The translations under genes and the position numbers were made by a program. From Acidimicrobiia bacterium (GTDB lineage: Bacteria; Actinomycetota; Acidimicrobiia; Acidimicrobiales; Bin134), in the NCBI GenBank assembly GCA_009843865.1, contig VYCQ01000039.1, positions 1 to 32,084 of the forward strand: 32,084 nt of DNA, in the 5' to 3' direction. Below the pieces are notes generated by a model. That model did not search any database and was not told where the DNA came from. It worked only from the letters and a program-made list of their open reading frames with translations. Below, one piece after another: positions 45-23,039 of the stretch; position 1 is the first letter of the stretch; every line of letters begins with the position of its first letter.

Positions 45-1616
45 GTGGTCATCTTCGTGGTGGACAACATTCGCAATGCCACCGCGCTCTATGAACACCT
101 AGCTGGAGGCATCGAAGCCGACGGCACACTACGTCAGGGCGCTTACCCTGAACTGTCCAATGTAGATGAGCATGGCAGGTGGCATAGCTCACCACGCACT
201 CTGGTGGTCCACAGCAAGGTAGCCAAAGACGATGCCATCCCCGACCCGCTCAAAGCTCTGCTAGTGCAGACCGCGAACGTTGACAGCAAAACAGATGCCG
301 AGGCCGCGGTACGCAAGATGCTCAACACCGTGGGCAAAGCAGGAGAGCCCGGTGCCAATGTTCGTTGCGTGGTGTCGGTGGCCATGCTCACCGAGGGGTG
401 GGATGCTCGCACCGTAACTCACATCGTAGGCTTTCGAGCTTTCAGTACCCAGCTTTTGTGCGAGCAGGTCACCGGGCGAGCGCTGCGCCGCACTGCTTAC
501 GACGCGCTGCGAAAAACCGATGATGGCCGCGTGTTGCTCGAGCCTGAGTATGCCGAGGTGGTGGGCATCCCCTTTGAGTTCATGCCCGGTGCCACCGAGG
601 TGAACAAAAACCCCAAATCGCCCAAACCCTGCACCCGAGTCCACACGGTGCCTGACCGTCGCCACCTCAGGGTGGCATGGCCCCAAGTGATCGACTACGT
701 GCGGCTTACCCCCCAGGGGCGGTTCGCCCTAGAACTCGACCAAGTAAAACCGTGGCAGCCCAGCCCCCAGAAGACAGCCACCATGACCGCGCTAGAAGGC
801 TCGGTGGGCAAAACATCCATCATCAGCTCGCAGTTAGATAATGAGCGCCAACGCACTGCTCAGATAGAACTGGCTTCAGAGATCGCCCGGGCCATGACCA
901 CCGGCGACTCCAACCACACCTCCAAAACACGCGAACAAGGCCGAACATCGCTGTTTCGCTCCGCGCTAGTAGCGGTGAGCCAATGGGCCGACCATCCCAA
1001 TGTTAAAGGCGGCAAAGCTGTCGAACCTTACGACCTTCGGCCCATCGCAGCCGACCCGACCAACCTCCAAGAAGCCGCCGAAGCCATCTTGGATGCCTGC
1101 AACTTCGGTGCTGAGTCCGAATCGTCCCGGCGGGCCCGGCTGGCTCAGCCCACGGTGGCCGACACCGCTCAGGTGGACTTCGAAACCACCCTGGCCCACA
1201 TTCATGAGGCCCACCACTCCGAACTCTCACACGCTGCCTGCCACTCTTACCTTGAACTGCGCTGCGCTAAAGCACTCGACAACGACCCACGCGTTACGGC
1301 CTGGGTGCGCAACTTCCAGTTGGGCTGGAGCATTCCCTATTGGGACGAAACCTTGTGGCGGCGCTATGAGCCCGATTTCGTGGCCAAGCTAGAGGGTGGA
1401 ATGAACCTCATCGTGGAGTGCAAGGGCGTGTGGGACGACAAAACCACCACTGTCAAACAGTGGACAGAGAATTATTGGATTCCCTGCGTGGCCGGCACCG
1501 TCGAGCTTCCCGATGAACTACGCCGCTGGCACTACGGGGTGATTGACGACGACAAGTCGGTGCGCCACCAACTCGATCTGGCCATCAAGGCAGCCCTAAA
1601 GGAAGGACCAGCGTAG
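45..1616 (+). CDS. res: Type III-like restriction enzyme Res subunit, 3' part (helicase C domain plus nuclease)
   Basis: This is the C-terminal part of a restriction subunit that works with the adjacent methyltransferase, using ATP-driven helicase/translocase activity and cutting unmodified DNA. The frame stays open from base 45 to the window edge, so the GTG at 45 is probably internal and helicase domain 1 (Walker A, DEAD box) is missing. Visible are helicase motif V (residues 110-121, VSVAMLTEGWDA) and motif VI (141-149, QVTGRALRR). A PD-(D/E)xK nuclease site follows near the C terminus, with PD at 443-444 and ECK at 458-460. Its stop codon overlaps the mod start by one base, so the two genes are co-transcribed. 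Family members are about 1000 residues, so about half is absent. The cytoplasmic restriction role is well supported; classification as true type III rather than a type III-like relative is less certain. Confidence 0.88.
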   Translation: MVIFVVDNIRNATALYEHLAGGIEADGTLRQGAYPELSNVDEHGRWHSSPRTLVVHSKVAKDDAIPDPLKALLVQTANVDSKTDAEAAVRKMLNTVGKAGEPGANVRCVVSVAMLTEGWDARTVTHIVGFRAFSTQLLCEQVTGRALRRTAYDALRKTDDGRVLLEPEYAEVVGIPFEFMPGATEVNKNPKSPKPCTRVHTVPDRRHLRVAWPQVIDYVRLTPQGRFALELDQVKPWQPSPQKTATMTALEGSVGKTSIISSQLDNERQRTAQIELASEIARAMTTGDSNHTSKTREQGRTSLFRSALVAVSQWADHPNVKGGKAVEPYDLRPIAADPTNLQEAAEAILDACNFGAESESSRRARLAQPTVADTAQVDFETTLAHIHEAHHSELSHAACHSYLELRCAKALDNDPRVTAWVRNFQLGWSIPYWDETLWRRYEPDFVAKLEGGMNLIVECKGVWDDKTTTVKQWTENYWIPCVAGTVELPDELRRWHYGVIDDDKSVRHQLDLAIKAALKEGPA

Positions 1617-4288
1617 TGGCCCGGCGATCCTCCGGCCCGCCCCGCCCGCCGGGGTCGTACCGCCACGAGCAGGCATCACGGGTATACCAGCCCACAGCCG
1701 AGACGGCACCGCTGATGGACGACGAGCAGCGCCAACCCAAGGAGTTCACCGTGACCCGTGTCGAAAATGACATTCCCGTTGAGCAGGCGGCCACCGACCG
1801 AGCCGCCCAGCCCGTGCCCCGGCTGGCTTGGGATCGCCAAGGCCATACCTCGGCCGACGACGGCCCCCACCACTTCGCGGGAACACCGCTGTACACCAGG
1901 GAGAAGATCAACCCCCTCACCATGATCGATCAGCTTCGCCGCCCCGACGCCGGGGTGCCGCTCAATTTGCTCGACGACTTCAACGGTCTGCCCGCCGACG
2001 CCCAGAAGTGGGAGTTCTACCAGCACTCCGGGCACTGGCAGAACCGCCTCATCCACGGCGACTCCGCTGAGGTGATGCAATCGCTTATCGCCCGCGATGG
2101 CCTAGCCGGACAAGTGCAGATGATCTATTTCGACCCGCCCTACGGCATCAAATACAACTCCAACTTCATGGTTGCCACCGACAAGCTTGAAACCAAGAAC
2201 GACGATACCGGCATACCAGTGGGCGACACCCTACCTATCAAGGCTTTCCGGGATACCTACCGCAACGGCATCCACTCCTATCTTGACGAAATCCACGAGC
2301 GACTGGTGCTATTCCGTGAGCTGTTGGCGGATTCAGGCTCGCTGTTCTTACAGATCGGCGATGACAACGTTCACCGCTTGGCCGTGCTCTGCGATGAAGT
2401 ATTTGGAGAAGAAAATCGTGTGGCAACAATTACTTGGCGACCGACTGGCGGGTCATCGGCAAAGACTCTGCCAGAATCGGCGAGCTACTTGCTTTGGTAT
2501 GCCAAGAACAAGGAAAGAGTCAAGTATCGACAACTATATGAGCCCTTGAGTCGTCGAGAAATGGTTGAAGAGTGGAATAAGAGTTTCTCTACTCCAAAGG
2601 TTGAAATGCCTGATGGCACAACAAGCAGATTGACCAAATCGGACGCCATCGATCCAGACAATCAACTTCCCAAGGGTGCTCGAATATTTCGCGACATGCC
2701 TCTTACTTCTCAAGGGGCATCAAATTCAGGAAGGACCTGTTCTTATGTGTTTGACGAAGTAATATACCACTCAGGAAACACGCGCCAGTGGCGTGTGTCT
2801 ACTCCTACGGAGTACACACACGCCACTGAGGCGGAGGCACGCGCCATTGGAGTGAATTCGCCGCCTGACGGCGGCGAAAAAGAACTGTGTGGTTTAGATC
2901 GCCTTGCCAAATTAGGGCGGCTTTACGGAACCGGTGAAGGCGGTGATCTTCACTGGAAGCAGTACGAAAACGAAATACCTGGACGCCGTATCGACAATGT
3001 TTGGAACATGGTAATGAAGACTTCCAACAAGCGTTACGTCGTCCAAGTCGCCAACACTGCCGTTGAGCGCTGCATCCTCATGGCTACCGATCCCGGCGAT
3101 CTTGTCCTAGACCCCACCTGTGGCTCCGGGGTCACACCGCATATGGCCGAGCATTGGGGACGGCGCTGGATCGGCATCGATGCCGGTCGCGTGTCCATCG
3201 CAGTAACCCGCCGCCGCCTGCTCACCACTACCCATCCCTGGTACCTCACCCGCGACGGGGGCAGCGATCCAGCCGCAGGGCTGGATATAGAGACGATGCA
3301 ACGAGTCTCCGCCGCCACGCTGGCCTACGACACGGTGAATGATCCCGAGAACACCATCTACTTGGTCGACCGGCCCAAACAAGACACCAGGCGCTCCCGG
3401 CTAACTGGACCGTTCACAATAGAATCGGCATCGCCCTACGCCTACCTACCTTTCAGCGAAGACCCTGCTGCGCCAGCCACCGACATCGGCGCTGCCGAAG
3501 GTCAGAATGCCCAGCGATTACTTGAAGCGCTAATCGCTCACCCCATCTGCGATGCCTCGGGCCAAGAGGTGCTGAGCGTGGTCGAGACCACCCCGTGGCC
3601 CCGCGGCCAACTAGTATCGCACGAAGCCGACTGCACCGCACCGGGCCGAGAAACCCGGCTCGCCGCGGCCATCATGCTGGCCGCCTCCGACATCACAGTG
3701 AGCGCGGAGATGATCGCACGAGCCGCCAGCGAGGCCCGGCGAGCTCGTCACGACATCTCTGATCTCATCATCGTGGCCAGCGCCTTCGAAGATGCCGCCA
3801 GCGCCGATGCCGGTGCGGTGCGAGTCCACAAGGTAGCCGCGTCGCGCGATCTGCAAATCCCCGGTTTGGGCAACGAACCCGATGCCGGTGCTTTCACCCT
3901 GCTAGGCGAGCCCGATGTGTTCTGCGATCGCGACGGCGAGGGCAATCTGGTTGTCGAGCTGGCGGGCTACGACACCTACGACCCCTCCACGGGAAGGGTC
4001 AAGCAAGCGAGTGGTGCCGATGTGGACTGCTGGATGGTCGACACCGATCACGACGGCACTGGTTTCTTCCCCCGATTGGTGTACTTGCCTGCCTTCAAGC
4101 GGGGCGATCCCCAGATCAAGCGCTTAGTCAAGTCACTCGGCAAAGACCTCGACAAGACAGCAGAGGAAGCCCTGTGCGGTACCACCTCGCAACCCTTTTC
4201 CCCGCCCCGTCCCGGCAACAACGTGGCTGTCAAGATAATCACCCGCACCGGTGCCGAGATGACCGCGATTGCCCACCCACCAGCATAA
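1616..4288 (+). CDS. mod: Type III-like DNA methyltransferase (Mod), beta-class
   Basis: S-adenosylmethionine-dependent adenine methyltransferase that supplies protection, and normally target recognition, for the Res subunit upstream. The motif order is beta-class: DPPY (residues 173-176) precedes the SAM-binding motif DPTCGSG (499-505), and the target recognition domain lies between them (about 265-465). The GTG start overlaps the res stop by one base and has a GGAAGG ribosome site about ten bases upstream. The protein has 890 residues, longer than a minimal Mod, with an uncharacterised C-terminal region of about 360 residues that probably contacts Res. Base composition is odd: the recognition domain (about 2400-3050) is visibly poorer in GC than its flanks (42% in 2521-2580 against 67% in 3121-3180, counted by hand). 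It also contains a large inverted repeat. This suggests the recognition domain was exchanged. Confidence 0.9.
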   Translation: MARRSSGPPRPPGSYRHEQASRVYQPTAETAPLMDDEQRQPKEFTVTRVENDIPVEQAATDRAAQPVPRLAWDRQGHTSADDGPHHFAGTPLYTREKINPLTMIDQLRRPDAGVPLNLLDDFNGLPADAQKWEFYQHSGHWQNRLIHGDSAEVMQSLIARDGLAGQVQMIYFDPPYGIKYNSNFMVATDKLETKNDDTGIPVGDTLPIKAFRDTYRNGIHSYLDEIHERLVLFRELLADSGSLFLQIGDDNVHRLAVLCDEVFGEENRVATITWRPTGGSSAKTLPESASYLLWYAKNKERVKYRQLYEPLSRREMVEEWNKSFSTPKVEMPDGTTSRLTKSDAIDPDNQLPKGARIFRDMPLTSQGASNSGRTCSYVFDEVIYHSGNTRQWRVSTPTEYTHATEAEARAIGVNSPPDGGEKELCGLDRLAKLGRLYGTGEGGDLHWKQYENEIPGRRIDNVWNMVMKTSNKRYVVQVANTAVERCILMATDPGDLVLDPTCGSGVTPHMAEHWGRRWIGIDAGRVSIAVTRRRLLTTTHPWYLTRDGGSDPAAGLDIETMQRVSAATLAYDTVNDPENTIYLVDRPKQDTRRSRLTGPFTIESASPYAYLPFSEDPAAPATDIGAAEGQNAQRLLEALIAHPICDASGQEVLSVVETTPWPRGQLVSHEADCTAPGRETRLAAAIMLAASDITVSAEMIARAASEARRARHDISDLIIVASAFEDAASADAGAVRVHKVAASRDLQIPGLGNEPDAGAFTLLGEPDVFCDRDGEGNLVVELAGYDTYDPSTGRVKQASGADVDCWMVDTDHDGTGFFPRLVYLPAFKRGDPQIKRLVKSLGKDLDKTAEEALCGTTSQPFSPPRPGNNVAVKIITRTGAEMTAIAHPPA
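2786..2828. repeat. 43-base near-perfect inverted repeat inside the mod recognition domain
   Basis: The outer arm CAGTGGCGTGTGT (2786-2798) pairs perfectly with ACACACGCCACTG (2816-2828). The inner arm ACTCC (2801-2805) pairs with GGAGT (2809-2813) around a three-base loop. Position 2800 also pairs with 2814, and 2799/2815 is the only mismatch, giving 19 of 20 pairs. The reading frame passes through without interruption. A direct repeat, CACGCGCCAGTGG / CACGCGCCATTGG, flanks it at 2780-2791 and just after 2836. It may be a small inserted palindromic element. Confidence 0.8.
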
Positions 4289-4309
4289 ACGAGGACATGG
4301 ACTTACCGA

Positions 4310-5542
4310 TTAGCCAGCCCAAAGAGCGCTTACCGGCACCGCACTGATCCGCTCTCCGAGTTCGTAGCTCTGCGGCCCGGTGTGCAGCACAACCCCGGCG
4401 ACAAACCGATCGCCTAAGCGATCTCGGAGCCAGCGCAAATGGCGAGCATGGTTGTTGGTGGGCGCTCCAGACGACTTGATCTCCAAAGCTACCACCTGCT
4501 GACCATCAAATTCGGCGATCACATCAATCTCATGTCGGCCTTGCGCGTCTCTCAAATGGTATAGCTGTGGAAAAAGATCGCTAACTGCGGCTTCAGAGCG
4601 GAGTTGAGCAACCACAAAAGTCTCAATGAATCGGCCCAAAAGATCGCTATCTCTGATCAAAGTCTCTTCGGTCGCACCGACCACTGCGCTCAACAGGGCA
4701 GGATCGATCAGGTAGCGCTTGGGTGATTTCACTAGTCGAGACAGGCGATTGGAGTGCCAAGAGGGCAATTCGTCGATAATTCTTAGATTGCTCAAAAGCT
4801 GCCGGTAAGCATTGCCAGTCTCCCGGTTAACACCCGCTGCCGTATAGATAGCCTTGTCTTCAACCACACCGGCTGAATTCAAAGCGTATGCCTCAAAGTA
4901 CCGGCTTAGCCGTTGGGGATCGCGTTGTGGAGCCATACCAAGGGTATCGCGCTCGACGACCTGCCTGATGTAGCTCCTGAGCCACCGTCGCCTTTGCAAC
5001 TGCGCTGTTCCCAACGCTACCTCAGGAAATCCGCCCCTTAAAGCAAGAGCGATGTAGCCGCGCAAATCCGGCGTATCAGACGTAGGATTCAAGTTATCCC
5101 CGGCGGCTATCCGATCTAATAGCGGGCGTGACGGATTCTCCGCCATCTCCGACACGCTCAGAGGATGCATGTCTACCCATACCAGCCTTCCTGTTCCTGC
5201 CCAGGTGCTTTCGTCCAAGCTGGCGCGGGCCGATCCCGTGATGATGAAGCGACCCGGATAACTCTCTGAATCAACAGCCCGCTTGACCGCCCCCAAGACC
5301 CCTGGAACCGCCTGCCATTCATCGAGCAACACTGGCTCAGCAAGCCCGCGCAGCGCAACATCAGGATCGGCCTCGAAAGCCGCCGCTTCTATCGCCCTGT
5401 CTAAACGAATCGCTGTGGCAGCATAGCGGAGGGCAGTCGTCGTCTTTCCCGAAGCCCTTGGCCCCACTAAAAAGATGGCAGGCACTTCAGCCAACAAGCC
5501 TGAGATCAAAGGATCTACAAGCCGATAACGATAATCGTCCAC
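4310..5542 (-). CDS. AAA family ATPase with C-terminal DUF4143
   Basis: A stand-alone ATPase of the widespread AAA/DUF4143 family, whose cellular role is generally unknown. It shows Walker A GPRASGKTT (residues 27-35), Walker B VLLDEWQ (71-77) and an IITGSAR sensor-like motif (100-106). The C-terminal DUF4143 region has nuclease-like residues EIDV (338-341) and EIKSS (354-358), resembling a PD-(D/E)xK core. The 410-residue length is normal for the family. The start is a GTG, as no better ATG lies upstream in frame. The gene converges on mod with a 21-base gap and no visible terminator, and sits in the same GC-rich block as the restriction system and the toxin-antitoxin pair. A defence or mobile-element role is suggested by this context only. 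Confidence 0.85.
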   Translation of the reverse strand: MDDYRYRLVDPLISGLLAEVPAIFLVGPRASGKTTTALRYAATAIRLDRAIEAAAFEADPDVALRGLAEPVLLDEWQAVPGVLGAVKRAVDSESYPGRFIITGSARASLDESTWAGTGRLVWVDMHPLSVSEMAENPSRPLLDRIAAGDNLNPTSDTPDLRGYIALALRGGFPEVALGTAQLQRRRWLRSYIRQVVERDTLGMAPQRDPQRLSRYFEAYALNSAGVVEDKAIYTAAGVNRETGNAYRQLLSNLRIIDELPSWHSNRLSRLVKSPKRYLIDPALLSAVVGATEETLIRDSDLLGRFIETFVVAQLRSEAAVSDLFPQLYHLRDAQGRHEIDVIAEFDGQQVVALEIKSSGAPTNNHARHLRWLRDRLGDRFVAGVVLHTGPQSYELGERISAVPVSALWAG

Positions 5543-10192: not shown

Positions 10193-10759
10193 ATGGCCAA
10201 CCAAGCTACTTTTTCTGATCAAGCCATGATCTACATGGACCAGCTCTACTCGGCTGCTCGGCGCATGACCCGTAATGTTGCTGATGCTGAGGATCTAGTA
10301 CAAGAAACCTACCTACGCGCCTACCGAGGATTTAGCAACTTTAAGGAAGGCACCAACCTTCGAGCCTGGCTTTTCCGCATTCTTACCAACGCTTTTATCA
10401 ACTCCTACCGCAGCAAGCAACGCAAACCCCAATCAGTAAACTTAGATCACACAGAAGACCTTTACATGCACCAAAAGCTCGGGAGCAACATTCAAAAGGC
10501 TCTTAACATCAGTGCCGAAGAGGTGCTGATGGAATCCATCACCGAGACGGAAATCGTGCAAGCTCTGGAATCACTACCTGAAGAATATCGCATAACCGTC
10601 TTGTTAGCCGATGTAGAAGGATTTGCCTATAAAGAAGTTGCCGAAATCCTAGAGGTTCCTATTGGCACGGTCATGAGTAGGCTGCACCGTGGAAGAAAAA
10701 CACTACAAAAACGGTTATCTGAATTCGGAAAGACTCGAGGTTATGTTGCAATCAAATAA
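10193..10759 (+). CDS. Sigma-70 family factor, ECF type, SigR/SigH-like
   Basis: RNA polymerase sigma factor of the extracytoplasmic-function class. Region 2 spans about residues 13-80 and contains [17 protein letters not shown] and [19 protein letters not shown], very close to actinobacterial SigR/SigH, which govern the thiol-oxidative stress response. Region 4 (about 121-173) has the helix-turn-helix [22 protein letters not shown]. The 188-residue length is normal. A gene for a small Cys/His protein follows after 17 bases and is probably its anti-sigma, supporting redox control. The ATG at 10193 lies close behind a TAAAAT box (10178-10183), so the message may be nearly leaderless. In mycobacteria a different sigma gene (sigM) lies near trxB; this one is separated from trxB by the Tad operon. 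Confidence 0.9.
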
Positions 10760-13878: not shown

Positions 13879-13978
13879 AATTATCTGAAATATCTTTTGA
13901 TATCATCTCAGAGGTATAGTAGGTTAAGCCCTTCGGAGCATCATCAGGCTCCCGCCTCTACTCTATGGACAAAAGCCG
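13879..13978 (+). promoter_or_regulatory. Probable promoter region of the Tad operon
   Basis: This 100-base gap separates hpt from the Tad cluster. It holds a TATAGT -10-like box (13915-13920) without a clear -35, and a small hairpin with GGAGC (13935-13939) pairing with GCTCC (13948-13952). No strong terminator for hpt is visible. Since the following genes overlap or almost touch, their promoter most likely lies here. Confidence 0.35.
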
Positions 13979-14647
13979 ATGCCTACGGCAAGCGAGGATC
14001 GACCCCGCCAACTTCCATGGATTACGGCTGGATTAGCCATCACCCTCAGCACCGCCATCATCTTCGCCATTTGGGCATCATCACTCAGTGACCGCACCGC
14101 GGTAGCAGTTGCCAACCGAATCATCCCAGCAGGATCAAAAATCGCAGTTGACGACCTACGCTCTGTAGAAATGGCAGTGGGCCAAGGTGCTACCTATATC
14201 CCCATTACTGAGATTGATTCGCTTTTAGGCCATGTGGTTCAAACCAACATTGCTGAAGGTACGATTCTGCACCCTGGCTTAATATCCACACGATCTGCGA
14301 TTGGTGAAGATCAAGCAATAGCAGGTGTGATGCTAGATCCAGGTGAATATCCAGTTGCACATCTCAGCCCTGGGCAAACCGTCGGGGTTGTCTTAATTGA
14401 CAACCCCGACCTTACCAATAACAACCACTCATCCATAACCAAGGTTGTCGAAGCGCAAGTTGTTGAGGCAAACGTGTTACCTGACTCAACCCGAAAAGCA
14501 CTGTTTGTATCACTTTTGGCTTCCAAAAAAGATGCACAGCTAATCAGCCAAGCTGCTTTTAACAACGAAGTGCGCTTGATCTTGTTGTCACAAACAACAA
14601 CCAAGGCATCCGCCACGCAAAACGACATAACCAAAGACAAACCATGA
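13979..14647 (+). CDS. SAF-domain protein, CpaB/RcpC-like
   Basis: First gene of the Tad cluster. One membrane segment (about residues 15-33) precedes an extracytoplasmic SAF domain (about 41-105; VAVANRIIPAGSKIAVDDLRSVEM), as in the CpaB/RcpC pilus-assembly proteins. Secretin partners of CpaB are absent, as expected for a single-membrane cell, so the protein probably acts at the membrane/cell-wall face. Length is 222 residues. The ATG at 13979 is chosen because the membrane segment follows directly; an ATG at 13965 is out of frame. The stop overlaps the next start in ATGA. Confidence 0.8.
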   Translation: MPTASEDRPRQLPWITAGLAITLSTAIIFAIWASSLSDRTAVAVANRIIPAGSKIAVDDLRSVEMAVGQGATYIPITEIDSLLGHVVQTNIAEGTILHPGLISTRSAIGEDQAIAGVMLDPGEYPVAHLSPGQTVGVVLIDNPDLTNNNHSSITKVVEAQVVEANVLPDSTRKALFVSLLASKKDAQLISQAAFNNEVRLILLSQTTTKASATQNDITKDKP

Positions 14648-15390
14648 GCTTCATTGCCATTGGCAGCGCAAAGGCCAGCCCAGGCGCAACGAGTCTGGCC
14701 GTTGGACTCAGCTTGACTTGGCAAGCAACCACTAATCGCCAAGCAATGCTTATAGAAGCTGATGCCGACGGAGGTGTGATGGCAGCTCGTTTCGGCCTAG
14801 CTTCAAATCCATCCTTGCTAGAATTATCTGGCACAGCTCGCCACGAGTTATCGCTCCAAGGATTACAAACCAACTGCCAAATGTTGGCAGATCAAGTGCC
14901 TTGTTTGGTAGCTCCTGGGTGCGGAAACACAGTTTCATTGGTGCTGTCTTCTATGGCAACGCGCCTAGCTACTAGCTTCAGCCAATTTGGCGAACTAGAT
15001 GGAATAGCAGACATAGGGCGCATACGCTTAAACACCCAGTCAGCAAAGCTCATCGAGTGCTGCGACCTTTTAATAGTGGTTGCTAGGCCAGAATTTGAAC
15101 AGCTAGTGCCCTTGGTACACCTAGCGCGCACCCTACAAACCCAAAATATCCCCAGCGTCCTAGTGTGCATTGGAGATCGACCTTACCCCCCAGCAGAAAT
15201 GGCTAAAACCTCTGGATTAAACCTGCTAGGGGTGATGGCTCACGATTCTCGTGTGAATCAAGCTTTGCTCAGCGGCCTACCCGAACAAAGCCGATCCCAC
15301 CGCTTGTTGCTATGGCGCACTTTAAGCGAACTAGCTCAGCGCATTCAACAACGCCTCTCACGAGCATCTTCAAGCCGTGTCGCAGCCTAG
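14644..15390 (+). CDS. CpaE/TadZ-like ParA-family protein with degenerate P-loop
   Basis: MinD/ParA-fold protein in the position of CpaE/TadZ, which localise Tad machinery at the cell pole. The fold is suggested by the N-terminal strand and loop, an AMLIEADADGG segment (the usual D in switch I) and a later LLIVVARPEFEQL strand. The P-loop is degenerate: residues 7-17 read GSAKASPGATS where KGGVGKT is expected, so the conserved GK[ST] lysine is lost although the first lysine may persist. ATP hydrolysis may be reduced or absent. It overlaps the SAF gene by four bases and lies nine bases before the cpaF-like gene. Confidence 0.78.
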   Translation: MSFIAIGSAKASPGATSLAVGLSLTWQATTNRQAMLIEADADGGVMAARFGLASNPSLLELSGTARHELSLQGLQTNCQMLADQVPCLVAPGCGNTVSLVLSSMATRLATSFSQFGELDGIADIGRIRLNTQSAKLIECCDLLIVVARPEFEQLVPLVHLARTLQTQNIPSVLVCIGDRPYPPAEMAKTSGLNLLGVMAHDSRVNQALLSGLPEQSRSHRLLLWRTLSELAQRIQQRLSRASSSRVAA

Positions 15391-15399
15391 GAGTTAACC

Positions 15400-16713
15400 A
15401 TGACCGTGAGCCTTCACCTCGAACGTGTTCTAAACATAATCAATAAAAAGTTCGAGCTAGCTGACATAGCTCAGATCAACAACCGCTCAGAACAAAAAGC
15501 CCATGCCAAAAAGTTCATCGCAGAGGCCCTCGATACCATCGCTGCTGAGCGTGCTCGAGCCTTCCTCCCTGCCATCGACAGCGACGAAGAGGAACGTATC
15601 AGCGACGAGGTGCTAGCCACTCTGTTCGGGCTTGGACCGCTAGAGAAATTGCTGGCCGATGACACCGTAGAAAACATCAGCGTCAACGGCTGCGACACAG
15701 TTTGGGTGCATCACACAGGTGGCGTAAAACGACGCGCTGACGCAATTGCTAATTCAGATGAGGAGTTGATCGCTCTAATCTCCCGAGCGGCGGCACGTTT
15801 AGGCCGCAATGAGAGGCGTTTTGATATTGCCAACCCATTTTTAGACTTGCAACTGCCTGATCGCTCACGCCTCAACGCTGTAATGGCCGTTTCAGAGCGA
15901 CCGGCTGTGTCTATCCGTAGACATCGTCATCAACGGGTCAGCTTGAATGACTTATGCAAACTGAATGCTTTCGATTCGGTCCTCCAAGATTTCTTAAATG
16001 CTGCTGTTAATGCGCGTATGAGCATCATCGTGTCTGGCGGCACCAACGCTGGCAAGACAACACTGCTTCGTGCACTGTTGAATGCTTGCGATCCCAGCGA
16101 ACGACTCATCACAATTGAAGACCGGTTAGAGCTAGCACTTAGCTCCGATCCTGAACGTCACTGGGACGTGATCGAACTAGAAACGCGCACAGCCAACATT
16201 GAGGAATCAGGTGAGATCACAATGCAGCAATTAGTGCGCAATGCGCTGGCCATGTCTCCCGACCGACTGGTGGTAGGTGAAGTAAGAGGCCCTGAGGTGA
16301 TCGACATGCTGGCCGCTCTCTCTACTGGCAATGACGGCTCTATGTGTACCATCCACGCTAACTCCTCACAGGCAGCCTTTAGCAAGATCGCCACCTACGC
16401 TTTGCGATCAGCCGAACAGCTGCCGGTTGAAGCCACTAATCGAATGATCGCTGAAAGCATCAACCTCGTAGTTCACTTAGAACACAACAGCCACGGTGAT
16501 CGCAAGGTGAAATCTGTTCGCGAGGTGATCGGCACCACACAAGGAGCTGTCAACAGCATAGAAATCTTTACAACAACCGACTCAGGCGTGACGCTCTCAC
16601 AAGGACAACTTCAACCTACCACCTATCAACGCCTCAATAAAGTGGGCTTTAACCCCGCTGAATACAGCTGGCTAGCTGATCAGGCGATCTGCACCAATGG
16701 AGCTGATGGCTGA
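15400..16713 (+). CDS. cpaF: Tad pilus assembly ATPase CpaF/TadA
   Basis: Cytoplasmic hexameric secretion ATPase that powers Tad/Flp pilus assembly. All motifs are present: Walker A GGTNAGKTT (residues 213-221), the Asp box ITIEDRLEL (237-245), Walker B RLVVGEVRG (289-297) and the His box CTIHAN (316-321). Length is 437 residues, normal for CpaF. A GGAG ribosome site lies just before the ATG. The stop overlaps the tadB start by one base. An intact ATPase indicates the locus is functional. Confidence 0.93.
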   Translation: MTVSLHLERVLNIINKKFELADIAQINNRSEQKAHAKKFIAEALDTIAAERARAFLPAIDSDEEERISDEVLATLFGLGPLEKLLADDTVENISVNGCDTVWVHHTGGVKRRADAIANSDEELIALISRAAARLGRNERRFDIANPFLDLQLPDRSRLNAVMAVSERPAVSIRRHRHQRVSLNDLCKLNAFDSVLQDFLNAAVNARMSIIVSGGTNAGKTTLLRALLNACDPSERLITIEDRLELALSSDPERHWDVIELETRTANIEESGEITMQQLVRNALAMSPDRLVVGEVRGPEVIDMLAALSTGNDGSMCTIHANSSQAAFSKIATYALRSAEQLPVEATNRMIAESINLVVHLEHNSHGDRKVKSVREVIGTTQGAVNSIEIFTTTDSGVTLSQGQLQPTTYQRLNKVGFNPAEYSWLADQAICTNGADG

Positions 16714-17636
16714 TGAGCGCGCTCATTGGTGCTGTACTAGGAACAGCCATGGGATTTGGAGTGGTTTGCATATTTGCAAGCAGTCAAAGGTTCACCGTAC
16801 ACACTCACCCACAAGCCTGGTTACGCAACAACAAACAGAGACCGCTGTCGAAACACGGCAATGAAATGGGTGCATCGCTGCTAATCCGCTTAGCAGCATC
16901 TGTTTTGGGGTTCGTCATTACTTTTGTGTTCACAGGCTGGCCCGTAGCTGGAGGGCTGATAGCAGTAAGTGCATTTAGTGCTCCCAAACTATGGACAGCC
17001 AAAGCACAACGAGCCAGTGAGTTAGAACGCATGGCTGCCTTAGCCACTTGGGTGGAAATGATGCGTGACACAATCAGTGCCGCGTCAGGACTAAACGAAA
17101 CTTTGCAAGCCACCGCTGATTCTGCGCCAGCCATTATTCGCCCAACAGTACGTCAACTTGTAGGACGCGCGGAACGAGAATCTCTCAATGAAGCTTTAAC
17201 CAAATTCGCTCAAGAGATGAACCATGCCATAGTCGACATCATCGCATTGACGCTAAGCAAAGCAGCAGCCAACCAAGTGGGTTCTTTACAGCAAGCCCTT
17301 GGCGAACTCGCAAACAACACCCGCCAAGAAGTTTCAATGAGACTTAAAATTGAGGCTTCACGCGCCCGCCAACATGCTTCTGCTCGTTTCGTTATGGGTG
17401 TAATAGCCGTTTTCTGCGTCGGCCTTATTGCCTTTAGCCGACCCTACCTTGAACCATTCGACAGCGCCTCAGGTCAGGTTGCGCTAGCTATAATCGGCAC
17501 ACTCTTTATTGGTTCTGCTGTTGCACTCGAAAAAATGAGCCGTTTTAGGGCTTTACCAAGAATTCTGACGCTAAGAGACAACATCTCAACCCAAGCTAAT
17601 GAAACGCCTTTGATTACTCAAGGTATTTACCGATGA
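16713..17636 (+). CDS. tadB: Tad inner-membrane platform protein TadB
   Basis: Type II secretion system F-domain protein forming, with TadC, the membrane platform on which the CpaF ATPase works. Hydrophobic segments lie at the N terminus (about 1-20), around 52-86 and in two C-terminal spans (VIAVFCVGLIAF and VALAIIGTLFIGSAVAL). The cytoplasmic F domain between them carries the usual pattern MMRDTISAASGLNETLQATA. Length is 307 residues. The start overlaps the cpaF stop, and the stop overlaps tadC in ATGA. Confidence 0.88.
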   Translation: MSALIGAVLGTAMGFGVVCIFASSQRFTVHTHPQAWLRNNKQRPLSKHGNEMGASLLIRLAASVLGFVITFVFTGWPVAGGLIAVSAFSAPKLWTAKAQRASELERMAALATWVEMMRDTISAASGLNETLQATADSAPAIIRPTVRQLVGRAERESLNEALTKFAQEMNHAIVDIIALTLSKAAANQVGSLQQALGELANNTRQEVSMRLKIEASRARQHASARFVMGVIAVFCVGLIAFSRPYLEPFDSASGQVALAIIGTLFIGSAVALEKMSRFRALPRILTLRDNISTQANETPLITQGIYR

Positions 17637-18511
17637 TCGTTGGCTTGGTTTTAGGTTGCGGAATAGGCACAGGAATAGTTCTAACCACCTGGGGGATATT
17701 CCCACCACGCCAACCCCTTAAAACACGCCTTAAAGCCCTACACCATACAAACGATGCTGCTAATAACCCCAAAACTCCACTTGATCAACTTGGACAAACC
17801 ACAGCCCAAATGCTTGCACGTCTGGGACTATCACAAAACAAGCTTGACTGCGATCTTCAAATAACTAGAACAAACTTGCAACAACTGGCTCTCGCCAAAT
17901 TAGCGGGTCTTGTGATCGGTGCAGGTCTGCCGATGACCTTTTGGTTTATCGGAGTGCTGGTTCAAATTTGGATATCGCCAATTTTTGTGGCCATCTCTAC
18001 AATCTTGCTAGGCGGGTTGTTGTTCTTGCTTCCCGATCTACTCCTCCACCAAAAAGCTAACCAACAACGACAAGATTTGCGACATCAGATCAGCGTATTC
18101 CTAGACCTCGTTGGCCTACACCTAGCAAGCGGCGCTGGCATCGAAAAGGCTTTGGTGGATTCTTCTACCCAAAGCACCGCCTGGGGTTTTGTAGAAATTC
18201 ATCGCAACCTTCAACAAGCTCAGTTGGCCAACAAACCTCTCTGGAGCGCTTTAGAAAAATTGTCTGATGATCTGAGATCACCTGAACTCAGTGAAATCGC
18301 AGCGTGGTTGCGACTTGCTGACAGTTCAGGTTCACGGGTTCGCTCTTCCTTGCATGTAAAAGCTCGAGGTTTAAGAGAACGTGCCTTGTATGAATCAGAA
18401 GCCCAAGCACAAATCGCCACAGAACGAATGTCATTGCCGGTGGTGCTTTTGTTTGCCGGATTCTTAGGACTTATTGGCTATCCAGCTCTAGCTGCCATCG
18501 TCGGCTCGTGA
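17633..18511 (+). CDS. tadC: Tad inner-membrane platform protein TadC
   Basis: Second type II secretion F-domain protein of the locus. It has an N-terminal membrane segment, two more around 85-140, a cytoplasmic F domain with LDLVGLHLASGAGIEKAL, and a C-terminal span (LPVVLLFAGFLGLIGYPALAAI). Length is 292 residues. The start overlaps the tadB stop by four bases. Pairing of TadB and TadC after CpaF is the typical Tad order. Confidence 0.87.
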   Translation: MIVGLVLGCGIGTGIVLTTWGIFPPRQPLKTRLKALHHTNDAANNPKTPLDQLGQTTAQMLARLGLSQNKLDCDLQITRTNLQQLALAKLAGLVIGAGLPMTFWFIGVLVQIWISPIFVAISTILLGGLLFLLPDLLLHQKANQQRQDLRHQISVFLDLVGLHLASGAGIEKALVDSSTQSTAWGFVEIHRNLQQAQLANKPLWSALEKLSDDLRSPELSEIAAWLRLADSSGSRVRSSLHVKARGLRERALYESEAQAQIATERMSLPVVLLFAGFLGLIGYPALAAIVGS

Positions 18512-18604
18512 TCTACAACAACGTCTTGATCGCCCCCAATACGGTTGCGGAGGCTGATATCGGCACCTTGAAGTGCCCATCAACAAGCTCAGAGGAAATC
18601 AAAA

Positions 18605-18799
18605 ATGAAATCCAAGATCTTTCGAGCCGCTATCAGCATAGGAACTGCGGTGACCATGCTGATCCAGCGAGACCAACACAACGAACGTGGCGATGTGACT
18701 ACTACGGTAATCATCATCGCTGTGCTGGTGACCGCTGCGGTAGCGGCGGGTGTTGTGATTACTTCGTTTATCTCCGAACAAACCAACAAGATCGGTTGA
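18605..18799 (+). CDS. Flp-like pilin candidate (64 residues)
   Basis: Small protein with an AGAGGAAAT ribosome site just before its ATG. A basic N terminus is followed by ERG at 27-29 and a 25-residue hydrophobic stretch starting DVTTTVIIIAV. This resembles a class III pilin signal cut after the glycine, giving a mature Flp-like pilin of about 35 residues. The Glu at mature position 5, usual in pilins, is Thr here. It directly follows tadC, the place expected for a pilin or minor pilin. A 93-base gap lies before it, the largest inside this operon. Confidence 0.65.
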   Translation: MKSKIFRAAISIGTAVTMLIQRDQHNERGDVTTTVIIIAVLVTAAVAAGVVITSFISEQTNKIG

Positions 18800-18803
18800 T
18801 CTG

Positions 18804-19232
18804 TTGGCGGTACGAAACAAGCTCCTAACCTCGGCGAGTTATCAGCCTTTTCCTCAAAACTGCCAGCAACGTGGTGAGGTATCCACCGCTGTGTTGGTAA
18901 TCCCAATAGCCATTGGTTTGGTGCTCATGGTTGTTCAGGCCGGTTTTGTGTTGCACGCTCAAGCCATCATTGATGCCGCCGTTCAAGAAGGTGTTCTTGC
19001 TGGCACTACCGAATCGGGCACCAAACAACTTGCATATGAGATAACTGAATCGGTGATCACGGATAGCTCCGAGACCTTACTCGCAGATGTAACGATAAAC
19101 GTGGAATCCGATCCCTTACAAATGATGATTACCGCTCGGGCGAAGGTGAAATCTTTGCTGCCTGGTTTCGAACCAAGCATTTCAGCAGTGGCTTCAGGAC
19201 CGCGTGAGATCTTCATCCCACAAGCTTTATAA
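18804..19232 (+). CDS. TadE-like pseudopilin
   Basis: Small single-span protein of 142 residues with a pilin-like junction QRGEVSTAVLVIPIAIGLVLM at about 22-42 and an extracytoplasmic rest, as in TadE. It contains the recurring TadE pattern HAQAIIDAAVQEGVLAG. The only start is a TTG at 18804, five bases after the pilin stop, so translation is probably coupled and the exact start is uncertain. Mature position 5 is not Glu. Confidence 0.68.
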   Translation: MAVRNKLLTSASYQPFPQNCQQRGEVSTAVLVIPIAIGLVLMVVQAGFVLHAQAIIDAAVQEGVLAGTTESGTKQLAYEITESVITDSSETLLADVTINVESDPLQMMITARAKVKSLLPGFEPSISAVASGPREIFIPQAL

Positions 19233-19294: not shown

Positions 19295-19684
19295 GTGGGG
19301 ATCAGCATCTTCACCCCGGTTGTAGCCACCTTATTGTTCTTCGTGATTGCTGCCGGACGAGTTGGTGTAACCGAAAGCAGAGTAACCACAGCAGCCCATG
19401 CAGCCGCTCGAATTGCCAGCCAACATCGCCACACAAACACAGCAGAAATTGCAGCCCAAACAACAGCAATGGCCTCACTTATCGAAGCCGATGTTCACTG
19501 CAAAGATGGGCCGCAAATACACATGCATGAACTCAATCTTCAGCCAGCAGGCAAAGTGCGCCTGCAAGTGTCTTGCAAGGTGAGCTTTGCTGATCTCATT
19601 ATGCCAGGACTACCAGACACCCTCACCGTTTCAGCTGAAGCAACCGCAGTGGTGGACAACTACCGCAGTGAAATTACTTGGTAA
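19295..19684 (+). CDS. TadE/TadG-like small pseudopilin
   Basis: A 129-residue frame starting at GTG 19295 has a hydrophobic segment (FTPVVATLLFFVIAAGRVG) and then TTAAHAAARIASQHRH, typical of TadE-like proteins. The usual leader motif lies upstream of this GTG: codons 19283-19294 add GSSV, giving QKGSSVVGISIF. The frame is open back to before 19232 with no ATG, GTG or TTG that includes it, only an ATT at 19256. The true start may therefore be non-standard. Its TAA overlaps the next ATG by one base. Confidence 0.6.
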   Translation: MGISIFTPVVATLLFFVIAAGRVGVTESRVTTAAHAAARIASQHRHTNTAEIAAQTTAMASLIEADVHCKDGPQIHMHELNLQPAGKVRLQVSCKVSFADLIMPGLPDTLTVSAEATAVVDNYRSEITW

Positions 19685-20145
19685 TGCATGCTTATCGAGA
19701 ACAGAAAGATGGCAAACGATTACATTGCGCTGACTCACTCGAAAGCGGCCAATCCTCTGTGATCTTTGTGACCCTTGCCGTCGTACTTGTGATGGTAGGC
19801 GGACTTGCCTATGACGGAGCTCAAATATTAAATGCCAAAAGGCAGGTCTCCTTATTAGCACGAGAAGCTGCTAGAGCAGGTGCTCAAGCCATCTCTTCAA
19901 GCTCACCATATGAGGAAGGCGATCTTCTGGCCATTAATCCCGCTCTAGCTCATAATGCTGTAGCAGATTTCTTAGAGCCACATAGCAACTACTCAGTTGT
20001 CGTGTTGGAAGACACAGTCTCAACAACAATTTGGTTAACACAGCCTGTCCGAATCTTGTCAATGCTAGGGATTGATGCGCAACAAGTTATGAGTACCGGC
20101 ACTGCCCGAGCGGTGCGAGGTATCCAAACAGAAAGCACACAATGA
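19684..20145 (+). CDS. TadG-like pilus protein, short
   Basis: A 153-residue protein with a soluble N terminus, the junction ESGQSSVIF and a hydrophobic segment (VTLAVVLVMVGGLAYDGAQIL), followed by REAARAGAQAI, the usual pattern after the membrane span of TadE/TadG proteins. It lacks the long von Willebrand-type domain of classical TadG. The ATG at 19684 is preferred because it overlaps the previous stop in TAATG; a TTG two codons earlier is less likely. Its stop overlaps the LysM/BTAD gene in ATGA. Confidence 0.65.
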   Translation: MHAYREQKDGKRLHCADSLESGQSSVIFVTLAVVLVMVGGLAYDGAQILNAKRQVSLLAREAARAGAQAISSSSPYEEGDLLAINPALAHNAVADFLEPHSNYSVVVLEDTVSTTIWLTQPVRILSMLGIDAQQVMSTGTARAVRGIQTESTQ

Positions 20146-23039
20146 AGCTCGACGATATAGATCGCAAGGAGATACTCCGTAGTCTGGGATGGGCCACACT
20201 TTTATGCATCTTCTTAACCGGTTTACCTATCTTCCTAATACTCGGGGTGGGATGGCCAAGCCCAAAGAGCCTGCCTCAGTTATCTGAGCTATCGCTTACT
20301 TTGCATACAGGGGCAATACCCGCTGATTTTGTAGTCAAATCAATAGCACTGATGCTTTGGATCGTCTGGCTACAAATGGCCTTCAGCACCGGCATAGACA
20401 TTTGGGCACACCTTCATGGGCGGGCCACTCCTCAGGTTGTTCTGATTCCTCGCTTTATGCGGTACTTATCAAGTCGTGTGATTGCCGGGGCCTTACTAGC
20501 TTCATTTGCTTTACAAAATCCTGCTACGGCTGTGGCTGACAACCGTGATCTCTTAATACCAATAACACCCGTCACCGTTTCATCTAATGAAGAAAGTTCC
20601 CAATCATCAGATTCCAACAACGATAACTTGCAAGATGTTGCTGAAAAATACTTAGGCAATCCTGATCGTTGGACCGAAGTTTTTGTTTTAAACAAAGATC
20701 AAATCCAAAACGACAATGAACCCCAACATGACAGTCAACCTCTACATGATCCAACTTCTGTAAAACCTGGCTGGGAACTCATCATGCCAACAACCACCCA
20801 AAAGTCCAACGACTCACAACAAGCCACACAGTACATGGTGGCCAAAGGGGACTCTCTTTGGAAAATAGCAGATCAAGAACTAGGCGACCCCGAAAGATGG
20901 GTGGAGGTGTTTGATGCCAATCGCCAAACAATCCAAGACCCTAACATGATCTTACCCGGCTGGGAACTACTTTTACCTCCACCACCAGCCACTAATAGCC
21001 CTTTTGAATCGAAGGCATTTGCACCAGCTATTTCTGAAAATACTAATTCTCTGTCACCTGAACTGATAACAAAAACACCACCATTATTAACAACAATAGC
21101 ATTTACCCCAAAAAAGGCTGAACCAGCCCTAGCATATGCAACCGCTACACCAACGGTTGTTCTCAACGTGCCAGATCAACCTCTCAACCAAAGTGCTCTG
21201 GATCGTCAAACCTTGCTGGCTCTCGGAGGTCTAGGGGTGTTTGCTAGCAGCTTCATTTGGATGCTTACCAAACTACGTCAGGCCAAACCCCGTCGACTAC
21301 CCGCCAACAGGCATCCCACATTAACCGAAGCCCCTCTCAACAACACCGAAAAACGCCTTTGGACTTGCATTGACAACGACAAAGCAGATTTCTTGGATGC
21401 ATCCTTGCGTTTCTTAACCACCCGCTTGGAAAACAAGCCCACTCCAGCCATTATGGCGGTTAACCTAAGACCAACCGGCATATCCCTAATGCTTGAAACG
21501 CCGATACACCCACCAAAGGACTTTGCGGCTAGCGAGGATCTGTTGACTTGGGAACTGCCTAAACAAACCTACCTCAACAATCATCTCCACGAAGCTCTAC
21601 AAGCACCAGCACTCTTGCCCCTGCTGATAGCACTCGGCAATATAGGCAAAGATGAGTTTTTGCTAAATCTTGCCCATATTCGAGTTTTGAATCTTCAAGG
21701 TGACCAAAATGGGATCACTGAATACTGCACATCAGCAGCTGCCCAATTAGCTAGCAGCCATCTAGTGGATGACCTTGCAATCATTTGCGTAGGCTTTGAA
21801 CAAAAACTAGTTGCGTTTGAACGAGTGCATTACGCCAAAGATTTAACAACAGCTCTAGCCCTTATACATCAACAACAATGTGAAGCTGAAGCGCTGCTCG
21901 GAACATCGACATCCTCCTCCAAACTTCAACCATCTAAACATTCCGATATTTCCCCAACAACTGTGGTCATTGCACCAAACCCACTTAACCCAGAAGATGC
22001 CGCTGTACTACTAAAAAAATGCAATGTCTGGACCTGTTTAATAGCTCAAGGTATACCCAATACCAATTGGAACTTACGATTTATCGGCGAAGCAATTTCT
22101 TTACAGCCCTTAGACATTTGGCTAAACCCTAATGGCATTTCAAGCGAATCCGCCTCGGCTATAGAAGCCCTGTTAACAACATCAATAGCTGCCAAACAAC
22201 AACCTACTGAAATGCTGCCCAACGCTAACCCATCACACAACAACCCCGTGGCACCCATCCTTAAGCAAACCCAAACACAAAGAAAACTTGAAGTACGAAT
22301 GCTCGGGCCTGTTGAGGTGAGCGGAACACAAGAAACGATCACCTCAAACCGAGTCTTAGATATTATTGCGTACCTTGCCGCCCACCCCGAAGGTGTCGAC
22401 CAAGGTCAGCTTATGACCAACCTGTGGCCAGCCGACAACCCACCATCTAGATCTACCTTATCCAACTCATTAAGCCGAGCTCGTCAAGCTCTAGGGATCA
22501 ACTCCCAAGGTCATCCTTACCTACCCCGTATGGATACCAACGGGGTCTATCGGCTACACCCCGAAGTGCGCACCGACTTACAGCTTTTCCGCGAACTGCA
22601 AATCACAAGCCACAAACATCCCGGCAATGAAGGTAGACAAATACTGGCTAAGGCTCTGGAATTAGTACGAGGTACCCCGTTTACGGGAGGAAACGGCAAA
22701 CGATATCGCTGGGCTGAATTCGGACTAAGAAGTGAAATTGAATTAGCAATTGACAATACAGCTCATGAATTGGCGCACAGATGTATTCAAGCAGGCAATC
22801 CTGACAGCGCACGAGCTGCGGTCATGATAAGCCTACGAACAGTTGGCCTGTGTGAAGAATGCTACCGCTGGCGACTCAAAGCCGCAGCAAACAACCACGC
22901 CGAAGTTCGCCGTATTATGGCTGAACTAACCACTTCTTTAACCCAAAGAAATCATAAAACATTTACACCTAACGAACCTCACGCTGATACCCAAGCAATC
23001 TACGACCAAATCATGTCAGGTAAAATCCTTTTCGAATAG
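20142..23039 (+). CDS. Membrane-tethered LysM - SARP/BTAD regulator
   Basis: A 965-residue protein with an unusual layout. Three membrane segments (about 17-37, 66-84, 111-130) lead to an extracytoplasmic part with two LysM-like domains. The first (about 161-216) is degenerate; the second (230-279, YMVAKGDSLWKIADQELGDP) is clear. A fourth membrane segment (357-375) is followed by RQAKPRR, and the rest should be cytoplasmic. From about 716 comes a winged-helix DNA-binding domain of the OmpR/SARP type (LEVRMLGPVEVSG; ALSRARQ-like recognition region SLSRARQALG), then a BTAD helical region (about 815-950). LysM domains bind peptidoglycan, so the protein could sense cell wall and control genes while anchored. 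It ends the Tad operon and overlaps its neighbour by four bases. Residues 385-710 are not recognised. The topology and role are inferred. Confidence 0.85.
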   Translation: MKLDDIDRKEILRSLGWATLLCIFLTGLPIFLILGVGWPSPKSLPQLSELSLTLHTGAIPADFVVKSIALMLWIVWLQMAFSTGIDIWAHLHGRATPQVVLIPRFMRYLSSRVIAGALLASFALQNPATAVADNRDLLIPITPVTVSSNEESSQSSDSNNDNLQDVAEKYLGNPDRWTEVFVLNKDQIQNDNEPQHDSQPLHDPTSVKPGWELIMPTTTQKSNDSQQATQYMVAKGDSLWKIADQELGDPERWVEVFDANRQTIQDPNMILPGWELLLPPPPATNSPFESKAFAPAISENTNSLSPELITKTPPLLTTIAFTPKKAEPALAYATATPTVVLNVPDQPLNQSALDRQTLLALGGLGVFASSFIWMLTKLRQAKPRRLPANRHPTLTEAPLNNTEKRLWTCIDNDKADFLDASLRFLTTRLENKPTPAIMAVNLRPTGISLMLETPIHPPKDFAASEDLLTWELPKQTYLNNHLHEALQAPALLPLLIALGNIGKDEFLLNLAHIRVLNLQGDQNGITEYCTSAAAQLASSHLVDDLAIICVGFEQKLVAFERVHYAKDLTTALALIHQQQCEAEALLGTSTSSSKLQPSKHSDISPTTVVIAPNPLNPEDAAVLLKKCNVWTCLIAQGIPNTNWNLRFIGEAISLQPLDIWLNPNGISSESASAIEALLTTSIAAKQQPTEMLPNANPSHNNPVAPILKQTQTQRKLEVRMLGPVEVSGTQETITSNRVLDIIAYLAAHPEGVDQGQLMTNLWPADNPPSRSTLSNSLSRARQALGINSQGHPYLPRMDTNGVYRLHPEVRTDLQLFRELQITSHKHPGNEGRQILAKALELVRGTPFTGGNGKRYRWAEFGLRSEIELAIDNTAHELAHRCIQAGNPDSARAAVMISLRTVGLCEECYRWRLKAAANNHAEVRRIMAELTTSLTQRNHKTFTPNEPHADTQAIYDQIMSGKILFE

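What the first reader, a model, noticed from the sequence alone, without database searches (positions are those of the whole stretch)
20142..23039. Membrane-anchored LysM receptor fused to a SARP-type transcription regulator
Four predicted membrane segments place two LysM domains outside and a winged-helix/BTAD region inside the cell. This is a one-protein route from peptidoglycan sensing to DNA binding. It is translationally coupled to the Tad genes, so it may control pilus production in response to the wall. About 320 residues between the last membrane span and the DNA-binding domain match nothing I recognise.
Basis: partly seen in the sequence, partly recalled or inferred. Interest (0 to 1): 0.8.

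Follow-up and report, generated by a model that had tools for sequence, protein, structure and literature searches.

The report
Wall-anchored SARP protein of Tad loci
A membrane protein with wall-binding LysM domains outside the cell and, inside it, a dead secretion-motor domain joined to a gene-activator domain is built into one class of actinobacterial Tad pilus operons, and it probably links the state of the cell wall or pilus machine to gene expression.

Summary
The 965-aa ORF at 20142-23039 has four membrane segments, and charge bias puts two LysM units outside and the C-terminal part inside. The C-terminus folds like the SARPs AfsR and EmbR (Z 16-17). The start overlaps the tadG stop (ATGA), as in congeners.

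The stretch that "matches nothing" is identified here. Residues ~413-684 are an FtsK/EccC-type P-loop domain, closest by sequence to EccC's own degenerate DUF domain. Profile search and predicted fold agree. None of 26 diverse members keeps Walker A, so it is a pseudo-ATPase.

In 21 of 22 distant actinobacterial loci with uncut upstream DNA (chromosomes and plasmids), the gene follows a run of Tad genes. Only some actinobacterial Tad loci have it. The architecture is not unrecorded: a 2013 table lists "LysM, BTAD" in a Propionibacterium plasmid tad locus without comment.

Most likely it is a Tad-dedicated, membrane-held SARP regulator in the manner of ToxR/CadC/TcpP. A structural wall anchor of the pilus machine is the main rival. 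DNA binding, wall sensing and control of tad are inferred, not shown.

The parts
20142..23039 (+). LysM / pseudo-ATPase / SARP membrane protein, 965 aa
   Evidence: ORF; family in the congeners and other actinobacteria
20193..20249 (+). TM1 (aa 18-36)
   Evidence: hydropathy 2.45
20328..20384 (+). TM2 (aa 63-81)
   Evidence: hydropathy 1.89
20478..20537 (+). TM3 (aa ~113-132), weakly hydrophobic, preceded by Arg and ending in A-V-A before Asp, like a signal-peptidase site
   Evidence: AxA in about 16 of 22 aligned members
20616..20789 (+). LysM-1, divergent (aa ~159-216)
   Evidence: family alignment A1; no Pfam hit in this protein
20832..20978 (+). LysM-2 (aa 231-279)
   Evidence: Pfam LysM E 1.3e-4, above cut-off; Kbp LysM E 4.8e-9 with the family profile
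21210..21266 (+). TM4 (aa 357-375), followed by TKLRQAKPRR
21378..22193 (+). FtsK/EccC-type P-loop domain without Walker A (aa ~413-684), pseudo-ATPase
   Evidence: AF2 pLDDT 75, pTM 0.74; Foldseek and VIA; profile vs EccC E 7.4e-7; no Walker A in 26 members
22284..22577 (+). OmpR/SARP-type winged helix (aa ~715-812); recognition helix aa 770-784
   Evidence: fold and profile match to AfsR/EmbR; AfsR contacts W74, S91, R92, R94 correspond to W762, S778, R779, R781
22578..22958 (+). BTAD (TPR-like) domain (aa ~813-939)
13979..14647 (+). rcpC/cpaB-like (SAF domain)
   Evidence: Pfam SAF 1.6e-9
14644..15390 (+). TadZ-position gene, no Pfam hit
   Evidence: position and conservation
15400..16713 (+). 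tadA ATPase
   Evidence: T2SSE 4.9e-39
16713..17636 (+). tadB
   Evidence: T2SSF, below cut-off, and position
17633..18511 (+). tadC
   Evidence: T2SSF 1.7e-7
18605..18799 (+). probable Flp-like pilin, 64 aa
   Evidence: conserved small ORF with RGDVTTTVIIIAVLV segment
18804..19232 (+). tadE-like 1
   Evidence: TadE 2.3e-5
19295..19684 (+). tadE-like 2
   Evidence: TadE 1.8e-4, just below cut-off
19678..20145 (+). tadG-like; its stop overlaps the start of the LysM/SARP gene
   Evidence: Tad 4.7e-4, just below cut-off; ATGA
13894..13952 (+). conserved promoter-like elements and 5'-leader hairpin upstream of the tad operon (hairpin 13935-13952)
   Evidence: alignment of 18 congener leaders

Best explanation
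A membrane-held one-component transcription regulator dedicated to a subset of actinobacterial Tad pilus loci. Its four membrane segments hold it in the membrane. The two LysM units grip peptidoglycan outside. A catalytically dead FtsK/EccC-type domain lies at the inner face of the membrane, where EccC carries its own DUF domain, and probably serves as a docking or oligomerising unit that reads the assembly state of the pilus machine. The C-terminal SARP unit binds DNA and recruits RNA polymerase, as AfsR does, most likely at the tad operon or other envelope genes. Shown here: domain identity, topology bias, loss of Walker A, fixed Tad linkage, start/stop overlap. Inferred: peptidoglycan as ligand, docking to Tad proteins, DNA binding, target genes and direction of control.
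For: Predicted C-terminal fold matches AfsR bound to RNA polymerase and promoter (Z 17.2) and EmbR (Z 16.1). The family profile hits EmbR (2e-11), AfsR (9e-9) and the membrane-bound regulators CadC (7.6e-5) and ToxR (1.3e-4). Positions that contact the DNA backbone in AfsR (PMC10936776) are kept: W762 in 27/30, S/T778 in 25/30, R781 in 29/30 members; the base-reading R779 is basic in 16/30. Positive-inside bias puts the SARP part in the cytoplasm. The middle domain is EccC/FtsK-like by profile and fold. The gene lies directly after the tad run in 17 congener loci with a complete run and in 21 of 22 uncut distant loci.
Against: No target promoter found. AfsR's R87, T88 and K95 are not kept in the window protein, R779 is acidic in 7 of 30 members, and one member (L089) has lost the recognition-helix Arg. 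The near-invariant position inside the operon would also suit a machine component. No expression, DNA-binding or peptidoglycan-binding data.
Confidence: 0.55

Rival explanations
1. A structural part of the monoderm Tad machine: LysM anchors the machine to the wall, the EccC-like domain docks to the TadA/B/C platform, and the SARP unit is a reused protein-protein module.
For: Strict place after tadG on the same strand in 21 of 22 distant loci; the ten highest-scoring TadA genes of the phylum sample lie in genomes that have the protein; the middle domain comes from a membrane secretion-motor family; the base-reading residue varies.
Against: Recognition-helix R781 in 29/30 and the W/S backbone contacts are kept, which a pure scaffold would not need; many actinobacterial genomes with Tad-type ATPase genes lack the protein.
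Confidence: 0.3
2. A latent factor released by proteolysis: the third membrane segment is an internal signal peptide cut at A-x-A, and the LysM-TM4-SARP part, or the SARP part alone, works only after cutting.
For: Segment 3 has an Arg-rich start, a weak hydrophobic core and A-x-A followed by a polar stretch in most members.
Against: Cutting at A-x-A would leave the SARP part attached through TM4; no protease site near TM4 was looked for; A-x-A motifs are common.
Confidence: 0.1
3. A DNA-handling factor for Tad-dependent DNA uptake, with the winged helix and FtsK-like part acting on incoming DNA.
For: FtsK-type fold and a DNA-binding-type domain in a Tad locus.
Against: No Walker A in 26 of 26 members, so no motor activity; SARP folds bind promoter DNA.
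Confidence: 0.03

Closest known systems
SARP regulators AfsR and EmbR
   Same: OmpR-type winged helix plus BTAD; predicted fold Z 16-17; main backbone-contacting residues kept
   Different: AfsR (NOD/TPR) and EmbR (FHA) are soluble and carry extra domains at the C-terminus; here the SARP unit is C-terminal to membrane, LysM and pseudo-ATPase parts
ToxR / CadC / TcpP membrane-bound winged-helix regulators
   Same: OmpR-type winged helix tethered to the membrane with an extracytoplasmic part; TcpP and ToxR control a pilus (from memory); profile hits CadC and ToxR
   Different: Opposite domain order, four membrane segments, LysM outside, BTAD and a pseudo-ATPase inside
EccC / EssC (type VII secretion) and FtsK
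   Same: Middle domain fold and sequence, closest to the EccC DUF domain that follows the membrane segments of EccC
   Different: Walker A absent throughout; single domain; no ESX genes seen in the annotated loci
PAGK_2369 of the Propionibacterium acnes plasmid pIMPLE-HL096PA1 (PMC3666418)
   Same: LysM and BTAD listed for one ORF right after three TadE genes in a tad locus
   Different: Labelled 'TadB' there; topology, pseudo-ATPase and role not discussed; not compared here at sequence level

Membership tests
SARP transcription regulators | OmpR-type winged helix followed by BTAD | tested here: met
   Predicted fold AfsR Z 17.2, EmbR Z 16.1; profile EmbR 2e-11, AfsR 9e-9; Pfam BTAD in 16/30 members, though not in the window protein itself
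SARP transcription regulators | DNA-contacting residues of the recognition helix | tested here: inconclusive
   W762, S778, R779, R781 match AfsR W74, S91, R92, R94; R87, T88, K95 do not match; the family varies at the base-reading site
SARP transcription regulators | Binds direct repeats and recruits RNA polymerase | not testable with these tools
   needs EMSA, ChIP and in vitro transcription
LysM proteins | LysM domain outside the membrane | tested here: met
   LysM-2 above Pfam cut-off; outside by charge bias, prediction only
LysM proteins | Binding to peptidoglycan | not testable with these tools
   needs a pull-down
FtsK/EccC-type ATPases | FtsK/EccC fold | tested here: met
   The 35 Foldseek matches with E<0.001 are FtsK, type VII secretion EccC/core complexes, the coupling protein TcpA and one entry named only 'ATPase'; VIA Z 11-12 for FtsK and EccC5 DUF; all six profile hits with E<1 are EccC or FtsK
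FtsK/EccC-type ATPases | Walker A for ATP binding | tested here: not met
   Absent in 26 of 26 members, window included
ToxR/CadC-type membrane-bound one-component regulators | Cytoplasmic winged helix joined through membrane segment(s) to an extracytoplasmic part | tested here: met
   Topology by hydropathy and charge, prediction only
ToxR/CadC-type membrane-bound one-component regulators | Transcription control from the membrane | not testable with these tools
   no expression data
Tad pilus locus component | Encoded inside a tad operon with conserved order | tested here: met
Tad pilus locus component | Needed for pilus formation | not testable with these tools
   needs a deletion mutant

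The most novel reading that the evidence does not exclude
A secretion-motor-derived pseudo-ATPase couples the assembly state of the Tad machine and its anchoring in the wall directly to promoter activation by a SARP unit in the same polypeptide: a one-protein route from pilus machine to RNA polymerase.
Probability: 0.3. Interest if true: 0.82.

Novelty: new variant of a known kind. Interest (0 to 1): 0.6.

Why it matters
How actinobacteria without a Gram-negative outer membrane hold and control Tad pili is poorly known. This family gives one candidate protein per locus that could do both. It also shows an EccC/FtsK-type domain turned into a non-catalytic unit inside what looks like a transcription regulator. 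It can be tested in cultivable Streptomyces, Microbacterium or Curtobacterium strains that carry the same locus.

Tried and rejected
A profile over the most diverse alignment (A1) could not seed the genome-contig scan, so a closer alignment was used. Pfam gives nothing credible for the middle domain in any member. L022 seemed to lack TM1-TM2, but that locus was truncated; the full contig (L051) has them. TPR hits at the top of the profile search come from the BTAD repeats against designed TPR arrays and were set aside in favour of EmbR/AfsR, which align over the whole domain. A look for an operator gave a conserved promoter-like region upstream of rcpC but no convincing direct repeat at SARP spacing (by eye). 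Literature searches for LysM with BTAD, Tad or Flp pili found only the 2013 table; two papers on Gram-positive type IV pili and on the Caulobacter Tad machine do not mention LysM.

Full report
What was checked. It occurs once in its own genome. Relatives with 41-55% identity occur in nearly all sampled congeners.

Topology. Hydropathy gives segments at 18-36, 63-81 and 357-375, and a weaker one at about 113-131. Over 22 family members, the loops assigned to the inside are basic (loop 2 net +2.1; after TM4 net +5.9), and those assigned to the outside are acidic (after TM3 net -6.6; before TM4 net -6.0). This is the pattern expected for N-in, LysM-out, C-in. Segment 3 looks like a signal peptide (Arg-rich start, weak core, A-x-A) in most members; whether it is cut is unknown.

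Domains. LysM-2 passes Pfam's cut-off and the family profile matches solved LysM domains. LysM-1 is divergent here but visible in the alignment. The C-terminal part of an AlphaFold2 model aligns with AfsR in its promoter complex (Z 17.2) and with EmbR (Z 16.1). The family profile finds EmbR, AfsR, CadC and ToxR. Mapping the AfsR contacts published in PMC10936776 through the profile alignment puts W762, S778, R779 and R781 at the places of W74, S91, R92 and R94. R781 is kept in 29 of 30 members, and R779 varies.

The unrecognised 320 residues. A separate model of residues 396-700 (pLDDT 75, pTM 0.74) was compared with the PDB. The leading Foldseek matches are FtsK motor domains, type VII secretion EccC structures, the TcpA coupling protein and the EccC5 DUF domain. 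VIA Z is 11-12 for FtsK and EccC5 DUF. Foldseek TM-scores are modest (0.47 at most), so the fold match alone would be only moderate evidence. Independently, a sequence profile of 28 members finds six PDB sequences with E<1, all EccC or FtsK, the best at 7.4e-7; the clearest single stretch aligns with the EccC5 DUF domain. None of 26 diverse members, the window protein included, has a Walker A motif in the domain. It is therefore read as a pseudo-ATPase, just inside the membrane, where EccC has its own DUF domain.

Genomic setting. In the congeners the order tilS-hpt-rcpC-TadZ position-tadA-tadB-tadC-tadE-tadE-tadG-LysM/SARP is fixed. Of 25 distant loci (5 annotated plasmids, 20 chromosomal or contig loci), three are cut at a record end. 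Of the other 22, 21 have a TadA gene and further Tad genes upstream on the same strand; in the Micrococcales plasmids one or two extra genes can lie between tadG and this gene. The exception, L094, has tadG but no tadA nearby. The start overlaps the tadG stop as ATGA in the window and in 18 of 19 congener loci. In a sample of 149 genomes of the phylum about 12 have a multi-domain match, whereas TadA-type ATPases, a broad class, reach E<=1e-60 in 121. So this protein marks a subset of such loci. A conserved promoter-like stretch with a 5'-leader hairpin precedes rcpC.

Interpretation. The retained recognition-helix Arg and the SARP fold favour a transcription regulator held in the membrane, working like ToxR, CadC or TcpP. 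The strict operon position and the secretion-motor-derived middle domain make a structural role in the pilus machine a serious rival. The data cannot decide, so confidence in the regulator reading is 0.55, although the anatomy itself is well supported.

Known or new. The architecture is common in databases as a 'LysM peptidoglycan-binding domain-containing protein'. One ORF with LysM and BTAD was tabulated in a P. acnes plasmid tad locus and labelled TadB (PMC3666418). I found no paper in the held library that describes its topology, the pseudo-ATPase, or its generality. That library lacks most subscription papers, so absence there is weak evidence.

Noticed in passing
window 18605-18799 +: A 64-aa Flp-like pilin candidate sits in another frame inside the 106-aa ORF 18508-18828; the small gene is conserved in congeners.
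   Followed up: partly
window 13935-13952: Leader hairpin GGAGC-N8-GCTCC upstream of rcpC, with matching changes on both arms in L031 (GGAGTT/AACTCC) and L047 (GGCACCG/CGGTGCC), next to conserved promoter-like elements.
   Followed up: partly
L094 3925-4857 and 11086-15005: tadG plus the LysM/SARP gene without tadA-C nearby, with an IS110 transposase in the stretch: a possible remnant or a stand-alone pair.
   Followed up: partly
window 10193-10759; L032 14489-15088: ECF sigma factor upstream of the tad region in the window; many congeners carry a second ECF sigma gene between the LysM/SARP gene and the trxB block.
   Followed up: no
G000:C35:87901-88719 (outside the window): A second T2SSE-type ATPase (341-aa frame) on the same contig.
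   Followed up: no
window 45-5542: Large N6/N4 DNA methylase (1616-4288) next to a 523-aa protein of unknown kind (45-1616) and an AAA_14/DUF4143 protein (4310-5542).
   Followed up: no
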